Origin: Brachyspira sp.
Lineage (GTDB): Bacteria > Spirochaetota > Brachyspiria > Brachyspirales > Brachyspiraceae
Length of the DNA stretch: 58,699 nt
NCBI RefSeq assembly: GCF_029258575.1
Contig: NZ_JARHYI010000017.1
Coordinates: forward strand, 1-58,699
Reading direction: 5' to 3'
This document shows positions 56,543 to 58,699 of this stretch, piece by piece. The notes beneath the pieces are model-generated. The model had not been told where the DNA came from and made no database searches. It saw only the letters and a program-made list of their open reading frames with translations. The position numbers and the translations under genes are program-made. The first letter of the stretch is position 1, and each line of letters opens with the position of its first letter.

Positions 56543-56931
56543 ATGTATACCTATGAAGAATATATAAATAAAGAACTGCCTGTTTGTCAAGTTGCTTTTT
56601 TATCTGTAAAAATACATTTGGACGATATAGAAAAATCTAACGCCAAAGGTGGACTTCATCAAAATAATGATTATCCTTTTATTTTAATGAAGATGAAGAT
56701 AAATGCCCTATAATGTTTATACAATCTTTAGTACATACAAAAGGAGAATTGACAAATCATAATATCATACTAGAGCCTTGGGAACAGTTTATAATAGCAA
56801 GCATATTCGGATGGAGGAGAAAGGACAATAATTTAAGAAGATTTAAAAAGGCTTATGTTCAGGTAAGCAGGAAAAATGGAAAAACTACTTTTTCATCTGG
56901 AATTGGTAATTATTGTTTTTTCTGCATATAA
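56543..56931 (+). pseudogene. Phage terminase large subunit, N-terminal remnant
   Basis: From ATG 56543 the frame reads MYTYEEYINKELPVCQVAFL, VKIHLDDIEK. It shifts near 56675-56685 (a T-run) and continues as FYFNEDEDKCPIMFIQSLVH then TKGELTNHNI, EPWEQFIIASIFGW and VQVSRKNGKTTFSSGIG. The blocks match terminase (Terminase_1 type): a His-Leu-x-Asp-x-Glu start, the KGE motif, EPWQxFIIA...FGW, and the Walker A variant SRKNGKTT. It stops after about 130 residues, so the nuclease part and most of the ATPase are lost. Together with the portal remnant it shows a decayed prophage. Confidence 0.7.
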
Positions 56932-57076
56932 ATATTCTTTTTTATTTATATAATTCTGATTTTGGTTTAAAAATGTCTTGTCTTATGCATAAGATAAGAC
57001 TATTCAAATTAAATACATAATAATAAAGTTTTAAACAAATTGCAACTACATATTAAATATATTGTTTTTTTATTAT

Positions 57077-58699
57077 TTAAGATTTTTTGAATAATCTTGT
57101 GAATGGAAGTTCAAAATCTTTATTATTTAATATTTCTTCAATTGTTAATATTTGTACTTTAGGATATTCTGTATTAAATATATTATACTGCAGTTTAAAA
57201 TATCCTGCTCTTCTTGCTTCATTGAACATATCTTGTGTAGGTTTAGCATAACAAATAAAGCCTGCCATATCAGCTTTGTTATTTTCCATAGTACCTATTA
57301 AATCTCTAATCATACTTACTGTTACAGTTTTACTGCTTTTGACAGAAATAATCATTTTTCCTAATGTTTTTTTATCATCTTTATAGAAATATATAGAGCC
57401 GTCTATTCCTCCATCTCCGCTTTTTTTAGAAGATGCAAATCCTTTTACTCTTTCTATAGCCCAATACTGAAACTGATAGCGTCCTTCATTTTTGCTTGTA
57501 TCTTCTTTATGTATCAATTCTTTAACCTGCTCCATAGTAACAGGTATTCCGTCTATAGTGTAGTCTTTGCCTTTCATTATTACAAGCGGATAATTATCTT
57601 TTAATCTTTGTTCTATTAAAGAACCTGAAAGCATGCATATATCAATACCTATCCATTTGCGGTTAAGTTGCTGGGCAGCATCTAATGTAGTACCACATCC
57701 ACAGAAAGGATCCATCACAATATCCCCTTTTTTAGTTACAGCCTTTATTATTCTTTCTAATAATTCAGTTGGCTTCTGTGTAGGATATCCCATACGCTCT
57801 TTAGACATAGCATTAATAATGGGTATTTCCCATACATCACGCATACGCATAGTTTCTTTTATATATTGTTTATAAACTTTTCCGTCTTTATGTTTAATTT
57901 CTTTATATTTTCCATTTTCATCTTCTTTATTATATTTGGATTTTGAAAAATCGCTAATAGGTTCAGACGCTGCTTCGGCATCAAAATAATATAATTTGTT
58001 GTTCTTTGAATAGAAAAATATAACATCATGTTTTCTTTTAAAAAATCTTTTAGACTGACTTGTACCTTGATAGCTCCATATGATCTCATTGATAAAATTT
58101 TTATATCCGAATATACCGTCCAAAATTATTTTTATATAATGGCTGGCAGTAGGGTCGCAGTGTAAAAACAATGAGCCTGTATCTTTTAATTTATATCTCA
58201 TTACTCTTAATCTTCTAGCCATAAATACCAAATAAGCAAGTATTTTAGGATTTTGATATTTTAATACTTTTACCCAAGCATTCCAAAAATCTGCAAACTC
58301 TTTATTATTATCTTCTGTTTCAAGCTCATTTGCAAATTCTTTAATTTCATCAAGCTTATCTTCTGTAAGTTCCCAAGCATCGCAGAATGCTATAGCACCT
58401 TCAGGTACAGGCTGCCCCGTATTAGTTGTATATATCATATTATAATTTCTGTTGGAATTAAAAGGCGGATCTAAATATATTAAATCTATGGAATTATTAG
58501 GGATTTTATTATTCATTACATCAAGATTATCCCCATAGAAAAGTTTATTTACATAACTCTGATTTTTATTTAAAGTGTTGCTTGTTGCTTGTTGCTTGTT
58601 GCTTGTTGCTTGTTGCTTGTTGCTTGTTGCTTGTTGCTTGTTGCTTGTTGCTTGTTGCTTGTTGCTTGTTGCTTGTTGCTTGTTGCTTGTTGCTTGTTG
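57077..58699 (-). CDS. DNA methyltransferase-endonuclease fusion with an in-frame 7-bp repeat tract (5' end off-window)
   Basis: The frame stays open from 57077 to the window end, so the start is upstream. Read N to C: at least 5 copies of the heptapeptide KQQATSN encoded by the repeat, a linker TLNKNQSYVN, then KLFYGDNLDVM and motif IV DPPF. The beta-class methyltransferase domain follows, with YPTQKP and the SAM motif I DPFCGCGTT about 250 residues later. The C-terminal 135 residues hold a PD-(D/E)XK, Mrr-like nuclease pattern: GDGGIDG ... IISVKSS. So one chain can modify and cut. The ATG at 58516 lies inside the conserved F-Y-G-D-N-L-D-V-M stretch and cannot be the real start, and no start codon lies between it and the repeat. 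Target sequence unknown. Confidence 0.82.
   Translation of the reverse strand, partial: QQATSNKQQATSNKQQATSNKQQATSNKQQATSNKQQATSNTLNKNQSYVNKLFYGDNLDVMNNKIPNNSIDLIYLDPPFNSNRNYNMIYTTNTGQPVPEGAIAFCDAWELTEDKLDEIKEFANELETEDNNKEFADFWNAWVKVLKYQNPKILAYLVFMARRLRVMRYKLKDTGSLFLHCDPTASHYIKIILDGIFGYKNFINEIIWSYQGTSQSKRFFKRKHDVIFFYSKNNKLYYFDAEAASEPISDFSKSKYNKEDENGKYKEIKHKDGKVYKQYIKETMRMRDVWEIPIINAMSKERMGYPTQKPTELLERIIKAVTKKGDIVMDPFCGCGTTLDAAQQLNRKWIGIDICMLSGSLIEQRLKDNYPLVIMKGKDYTIDGIPVTMEQVKELIHKEDTSKNEGRYQFQYWAIERVKGFASSKKSGDGGIDGSIYFYKDDKKTLGKMIISVKSSKTVTVSMIRDLIGTMENNKADMAGFICYAKPTQDMFNEARRAGYFKLQYNIFNTEYPKVQILTIEEILNNKDFELPFTRLFKKS
58577..58699. repeat. Heptanucleotide tandem repeat, at least 17.5 copies of GTTGCTT, running off the window
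   Basis: The unit GTTGCTT (minus strand AAGCAAC) repeats without a single mismatch over 123 bp up to the window end. Since 7 is not a multiple of 3, each gain or loss of one copy shifts the reading frame of the methyltransferase gene that passes through it. None of the three frames of the repeat contains a stop. This is the usual make-up of a slipped-strand phase-variation tract. The true copy number is unknown because assembly stops here. Confidence 0.95.

What the first reader, a model, noticed from the sequence alone, without database searches (positions are those of the whole stretch)
57077..58699. Likely phase-variable methyltransferase-restriction fusion controlled by a 7-bp coding repeat
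Seen: a perfect GTTGCTT repeat (at least 17 copies) lies inside the open frame of a DNA methyltransferase fused to an Mrr-like nuclease domain, and no start codon exists between the repeat and the conserved FYGDNL...DPPF block. Known: simple repeats with a unit not divisible by three in the 5' part of mod/methylase genes give ON/OFF switching (phasevarions in Haemophilus, Neisseria, Helicobacter). Inferred: copy-number slippage toggles modification and cutting together in this spirochaete, and could switch methylation-dependent gene expression. A single-chain enzyme avoids unmodified cutting when OFF because both activities vanish together.
Basis: partly seen in the sequence, partly recalled or inferred. 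Interest (0 to 1): 0.85.

Follow-up and report, generated by a model that had tools for sequence, protein, structure and literature searches.

The report
Repeat-switched DNA methyltransferase in Brachyspira
A gut spirochaete carries a DNA-marking enzyme whose gene begins with a stretch of identical 7-letter repeats that very probably switches the gene on and off at random; the switching principle is known from other bacteria, but this enzyme and its whole genus-wide family of repeat-switched genes appear undescribed.

Summary
A perfect GTTGCTT array (17.7 copies, 58576-58699) runs to the contig end and is read in frame, on the minus strand, into a beta-class N6/N4 methyltransferase with a C-terminal Mrr-like PD-(D/E)XK domain. 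Both other frames stop within 10 bases of the array, and no start codon precedes FYGDNL. The gene's own start lies off the contig. The only contig carrying an ATG next to the same array (C143) belongs by synteny to an outer-membrane-protein gene, so I do not use it.

Comparative evidence makes phase variation the best reading. The B. alvinipulli ortholog has a different repeat, (AGACC)11.8, at the same codons just after its ATG and is out of frame (OFF). The closest ortholog has no array and is ON. In Brachyspira, 14 of 14 AAGCAAC arrays with a visible 5' flank begin within 14 nt of an open ATG (background 19%). The gene is under purifying selection (dN/dS 0.17) with a swapped target-recognition region.

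Weak points: no within-species copy-number data, nuclease residues partly substituted (QxK to SVK), and no evidence for a regulon. Phase-variable single-chain R-M enzymes are known (Cj0031). This is a new architecture and unit, within a larger repeat-switched repertoire.

The parts
58576..58699 (-). Perfect heptanucleotide array, AAGCAAC on the coding strand (GTTGCTT on +), at least 17.7 copies, cut by the contig end; encodes (KQQATSN)n and is free of stops in all three frames
   Evidence: TRF 100% match; frames read
57077..58699 (-). Open reading frame running from the array into the methyltransferase-Mrr protein (540 aa visible, N-terminus off the contig)
   Evidence: dN/dS 0.168 against the 85%-identical ortholog
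58523..58540 (-). FYGDNL; G, D and L of this motif are invariant in 17 homologs and it forms the first core strand of the model
   Evidence: alignment A1, AlphaFold2 model strand 6-10
58514..58516 (-). First in-frame ATG downstream of the array; a start here would lose the invariant GDNL strand
57638..58489 (-). Beta-class N6/N4 amino-methyltransferase domain (motif IV DPPF at 58460-58471 before motif I DPFCGCGTT)
   Evidence: Pfam PF01555 4e-47; M.RsrI 1e-20; Foldseek M.BceJIV, M.RsrI, CcrM, EcoP15I Mod
57209..57433 (-). C-terminal Mrr-like PD-(D/E)XK domain; Asp (57401-57403) and Lys (57338-57340) invariant, residue two before the Lys is Ser instead of Gln/Glu
   Evidence: Pfam PF04471 8e-7; alignments; model pLDDT about 84-96 over most of this part, alpha-beta-beta-alpha-beta
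58566..58572 (-). TAA stops in both alternative frames (58572-58570 and 58568-58566) directly behind the array, which end translation in OFF states
56543..56931 (+). Broken remnant of a phage terminase large-subunit gene, convergent with the methyltransferase; intact 620-aa copy at the same place in B. alvinipulli
   Evidence: (phrog_4914 1e-24)

Best explanation
The locus is a translationally phase-variable DNA methyltransferase. Ribosomes start at an ATG just upstream of the array (off this contig) and read through the heptamer repeat, which is stop-free in all frames. Slipped-strand mispairing adds or removes 7-bp units; only one copy number in three keeps the methyltransferase-Mrr frame, and the other two end at a TAA within 10 bases of the array. 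SHOWN: array, open frame, immediate OFF stops, conserved two-domain protein under purifying selection, ortholog with another SSR at the same codons out of frame, and the genus-wide rule that this heptamer sits directly behind start codons. INFERRED: the start codon here, slippage in living populations, and loss of methylation in OFF cells. GUESSED: that the Mrr-like domain cuts unmethylated DNA (so the gene is a prophage-derived single-chain restriction-modification system switched as a unit), and that methylation alters expression of other genes.
For: Perfect array, unit not a multiple of 3, in the extreme 5' part. OFF frames stop at once. The B. alvinipulli ortholog has ATGCCTGC followed by (AGACC)11.8 at the homologous position, with the ATG out of frame; the uncultured Brachyspira ortholog has ATGCCTGCAGACCAGAAAAAC, no array, ON. 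14/14 Brachyspira AAGCAAC arrays with visible 5' flank have an open ATG within 14 nt upstream against 19% background, nominal p 8e-11, not corrected for shared ancestry. Arrays fused directly to other genes are found ON (G019; OMP genes of G010 and G016) and OFF (G010 polytopic membrane protein). dN/dS: MTase N part 0.053, Mrr 0.081, recognition region 0.58 and, in other comparisons, up to 1.04, i.e. domain-swapped. GDNL is nearly invariant (G, D, L invariant), so the internal ATG is an unlikely start.
Against: The start codon of this gene is not in the assembly; no other contig end with two or more units, or with a start plus GCAAC, fits it. C143, which has a perfect RBS-ATG-array, belongs to the OMP gene by conserved synteny. 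No reads or second isolate to show length variation. AAGCAAC arrays in other spirochaetes, and most AGACC arrays in Brachyspira, are not behind start codons, so such arrays do not always switch translation. The nuclease active site is partly substituted. Protein families flag a similar translated heptamer as spurious (NF041631, sub-threshold).
Confidence: 0.76

Rival explanations
1. The array is a passive hitch-hiking repeat: the gene sits in a decaying prophage, lost its true 5' end, and is not expressed as an array-led protein.
For: The adjacent terminase is broken and the flanks rearranged; no start is visible; AAGCAAC arrays also occur in non-coding places in other spirochaetes.
Against: Strong purifying selection on the MTase and Mrr parts and an intact frame directly up to and through the array. 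The ortholog in another species has its own SSR at the same codons behind an intact RBS and ATG.
Confidence: 0.13
2. The array switches or tunes the gene at the level of transcription or translation initiation (5' leader length), not by reading frame.
For: Most AGACC arrays in Brachyspira lie about 50-220 nt upstream of glycan-type genes and several arrays in other genera of the phylum follow a TTGACA box, so leader-located arrays exist in the phylum.
Against: Here the frame is open from array into protein and no usable start or RBS follows the array; in the genus this unit sits behind start codons.
Confidence: 0.06
3. It is a phase-variable orphan methyltransferase; the Mrr-like domain no longer cuts and serves DNA binding or dimerisation. 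(This rival concerns the output of the switch and is compatible with the switching mechanism.)
For: The Brachyspira clade has Ser at the [E/Q]xK position and Gln at the helix Glu; weak match to the inactive-nuclease family PF22722.
Against: Asp and Lys of the PD...K core are invariant in all 17 homologs, and the domain is conserved about as tightly as the MTase.
Confidence: 0.45

Closest known systems
Campylobacter jejuni Cj0031 (cj0031c), phase-variable Type IIG enzyme (PMC4889913)
   Same: Methyltransferase and endonuclease predicted in one chain, switched together by a slippage tract; variable specificity region between conserved ends; many alleles lack the tract
   Different: Cj0031 has a G9 tract about two thirds into a 1243-aa Eco57I/TaqI-type protein; here a heptamer at the 5' end of a roughly 500-aa beta-class MTase with C-terminal Mrr-like domain, next to a phage terminase remnant, in a spirochaete
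Type III Mod phasevarions (ModA of Haemophilus and others; PMC4525171)
   Same: 5' coding SSR and swapped recognition domain between alleles (own knowledge and abstract); same MTase fold (Foldseek EcoP15I Mod, Mod 6k0w)
   Different: No Res helicase on the visible (downstream) side, has an Mrr-like domain, no regulon shown
Phage and plasmid MTase-Mrr homologs, e.g. Marinitoga phage MPV1 (41.6%, full length)
   Same: Full-length match covering both domains
   Different: The listed relatives are annotated only as DNA methyltransferases; I did not check them for repeat arrays

Membership tests
SSR phase-variable (contingency) gene | Perfect short tandem repeat, unit not divisible by 3, in the 5' coding part | tested here: met
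   17.7 perfect 7-bp copies, frame open through them
SSR phase-variable (contingency) gene | Start codon and RBS upstream, in frame at one copy number in three | tested here: inconclusive
   Upstream contig missing; an ATG is met at 14/14 other arrays of the unit in the genus and in the B. alvinipulli ortholog
SSR phase-variable (contingency) gene | Off frames terminate early | tested here: met
   TAA in both frames within 10 nt of the array
SSR phase-variable (contingency) gene | Copy number varies within a clone or species | not testable with these tools
   one genome per species, no reads
Beta-class N6/N4 amino-methyltransferase | DPP[FYW] motif before the SAM motif, matching domain and fold | tested here: met
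Mrr-type PD-(D/E)XK nuclease | Asp ... [E/Q]xK catalytic core | tested here: inconclusive
   Asp and Lys invariant, [E/Q] replaced by Ser in Brachyspira
Type IIG restriction-modification enzyme (classical) | N-terminal nuclease fused to an Eco57I/TaqI-like (gamma-class) methyltransferase | tested here: not met
   Beta-class order with a C-terminal nuclease-like domain
Type III R-M (Mod/Res) | Adjacent Res helicase-nuclease | tested here: inconclusive
   None on the downstream side, where a terminase remnant lies; upstream side not in the assembly
Phasevarion | ON/OFF methylation changes expression of a gene set | not testable with these tools
   needs methylome and transcriptome of variants

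The most novel reading that the evidence does not exclude
The methyltransferase is one output of a genus-wide system in Brachyspira in which interchangeable SSR units (AAGCAAC, ACACAAC, ACACAGC, AGACC) are repeatedly seeded at the same codons of orthologous genes. It works in two modes: direct in-frame fusion (methyltransferase, outer-membrane protein) and a repeat-bearing leader ORF that in one frame of three ends on the start codon of a downstream membrane-protein gene, switching it by translational coupling.
Probability: 0.4. Interest if true: 0.75.

Novelty: new variant of a known kind. Interest (0 to 1): 0.52.

Why it matters
I found no paper on repeat-driven phase variation of a methyltransferase in Brachyspira (0 papers with 'Brachyspira', 'phase variation' and 'methyltransferase' in the held library; subscription journals are largely absent). 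If real, it adds a randomly switching DNA-modification enzyme to a genus of gut spirochaetes that includes animal pathogens. It also points to a shared repeat unit controlling both epigenetic marking and surface structures. That would make strain heterogeneity, phage sensitivity and transformability directly testable by reading tract lengths. It also explains why these loci are broken or missing in short-read assemblies.

Tried and rejected
Joining C143 (AAGGAGT-ATGATGGATAATG-array) to this gene: attractive, but rejected because its ankyrin gene is the divergent neighbour of the C60 outer-membrane-protein gene across the genus and the upstream region matches that of OMP relatives. Finding the missing upstream contig by two-unit pattern, by upstream flanks of the orthologs and by RBS-ATG-GCAAC pattern: none found; C15 shares the integrase and a roughly 225-bp segment but carries other defence genes. 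AAGCAAC matches in IMG/VR contigs: mostly short arrays in unrelated contexts, not pursued. The AGACC reversed control is uninformative because the reverse is a rotation of the unit. Foldseek matched only the MTase part among listed hits, so it does not confirm the Mrr part independently.

Full report
WHAT IS THERE. The window is contig C61 of a 155-contig Brachyspira assembly and ends inside the repeat. TRF finds a perfect GTTGCTT array at 58576-58699, 17.7 copies, 100% match. On the minus strand the frame is open from the contig end through the array to a stop at 57077. The array encodes (KQQATSN)n and is stop-free in all three frames because 7 = 1 mod 3. Behind it one frame continues into the enzyme; the other two meet TAA at once. 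The first in-frame ATG after the array (58516) lies behind FYGDNL, whose G, D and L are invariant in 17 homologs and which forms the first strand of the predicted core, so it is an unlikely start.

WHAT THE PROTEIN IS. Pfam gives N6_N4_Mtase (4e-47) and Mrr_cat (8e-7). Sequence and fold searches place the first part with beta-class methyltransferases (M.RsrI, M.BceJIV, CcrM, Type III Mod). In the C-terminal domain the Asp and Lys of the PD-(D/E)XK core are invariant across 17 homologs, but the residue two before the Lys, Gln in most and Glu in one, is Ser in Brachyspira, and a helix Glu is Gln. Nuclease activity is therefore open. The protein is under purifying selection (dN/dS 0.168 against the closest ortholog; MTase N part 0.053; Mrr part 0.081), while the recognition region is replaced between orthologs (0.58-1.04 against the two nearest orthologs). 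In B. alvinipulli the gene lies beside an intact phage terminase gene (phrog_9), on a contig stretch also listed in IMG/VR. In the window the terminase is a broken remnant. The gene is thus prophage-associated but maintained.

WHY PHASE VARIATION. (1) The B. alvinipulli ortholog has a different repeat at the same codons: an RBS, ATGCCTGC, then (AGACC)11.8, with the ATG out of frame in that assembly, i.e. OFF; the closest ortholog (uncultured Brachyspira) has no array and is ON. Two different repeat units at one position in orthologs argue for selection for a slippage tract there. (2) The heptamer is a genus habit: 10 of 26 Brachyspira genomes carry it. In 14 of 14 arrays with a visible 5' flank an ATG with an open path lies 2-14 nt upstream, against 19% of positions in the same loci (nominal p 8e-11; several loci are related, so this overstates independence). 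(3) The outer-membrane-protein gene on C60 shows the same exchange of units at one place: AAGCAAC here, ACACAAC in G008, G016 and G021, ACACAGC in G010, none in many others. Arrays fused to genes are found ON (G010 and G016 OMP, G019) and OFF (G010 membrane gene, B. alvinipulli methyltransferase).

WHAT IS MISSING. The start of this gene is not in the assembly. C143 ends in the same array behind AAGGAGT-ATG and looks like the missing half, but its ankyrin gene is the divergent neighbour of the C60 OMP gene across the genus, and its upstream region matches the OMP upstream region of relatives, so it belongs there. Three searches for the true partner failed. No reads or second isolate were available, so slippage itself is inferred.

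BEYOND THE FINDING. In many loci the heptamer sits in a short leader ORF upstream of polytopic membrane-protein genes. In almost every such locus at least one leader frame ends within about 25 nt of the downstream start codon, often overlapping it as ATGA, while another ends roughly 45-90 nt earlier. This suggests switching by translational coupling. An ATGA overlap arises automatically with ATG-AAA starts, so the evidence is only that one frame stays open that far. AGACC arrays occur in 20 of 26 genomes, mostly 50-220 nt upstream of glycan-type genes and usually not behind an ATG. AAGCAAC arrays also occur in five other genera of the phylum, several behind a TTGACA box.

COMPARISON WITH THE KNOWN. 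Switching of a single-chain restriction-modification enzyme by a slippage tract, including the point that both activities vanish together, is published for Cj0031. 5' SSR-switched methyltransferases with swapped recognition domains are the Type III phasevarions (own knowledge). New here are the architecture (beta-class MTase plus C-terminal Mrr-like domain), the heptamer, the exchange of repeat units between orthologs, the prophage setting and the host genus. I file it as a new variant of a known kind. Working like a phase-variable R-M gene is likely; being a functional restriction system or a phasevarion is untested.

Noticed in passing
L011 (C60 end) and L009:4041-4159 (C143 end): An outer-membrane-like protein gene (signal peptide, 416+ aa, conserved in 24 of 26 Brachyspira genomes) carries the same AAGCAAC array behind AAGGAGT-ATG in this genome; orthologs have ACACAAC or ACACAGC heptamers or none at the same place.
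   Followed up: yes
L010:421-448, and L172, L174, L175, L177, L179, L181, L182, L183, L291: Heptamer arrays in a leader ORF upstream of membrane-protein genes; in almost every locus at least one leader frame ends near or on the downstream start codon, others end 45-90 nt earlier, suggesting phase-variable translational coupling.
   Followed up: partly
L010:3667-3777: A second, mixed ACAAC/ACAACAAAC tandem array directly behind an ATG in a 66-aa ORF between two related membrane-protein genes of this genome.
   Followed up: no
L323-L341 (20 of 26 Brachyspira genomes): AGACC pentamer arrays, many per genome, upstream of glycan-type genes (annotation by eye: NeuB- and NeuA-like, FkbM-like, radical SAM), including three on a 32.6-kb contig of G007; mostly not behind an ATG.
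   Followed up: partly
L281-L290: AAGCAAC arrays in other genera of the phylum, often directly after a TTGACA box and ahead of lipoprotein-like genes (one with BspA-type leucine-rich repeats).
   Followed up: partly
window 56543-57080: Terminase remnant beside the methyltransferase, and about 95 nt just behind the methyltransferase stop that resemble (77-83%) the region directly upstream of its orthologs, suggesting a rearranged element.
   Followed up: partly
L322 (C15): The same prophage-type integrase as in the ortholog's island (about 89% DNA identity) next to a C5-cytosine methylase and other likely defence genes: an exchangeable defence island.
   Followed up: partly
window 58576-58699 (translated): NCBIfam has a model for a similar translated heptamer labelled 'KRQAASG repeat spurious translation' (sub-threshold here), so annotation pipelines may discard such N-termini.
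   Followed up: no
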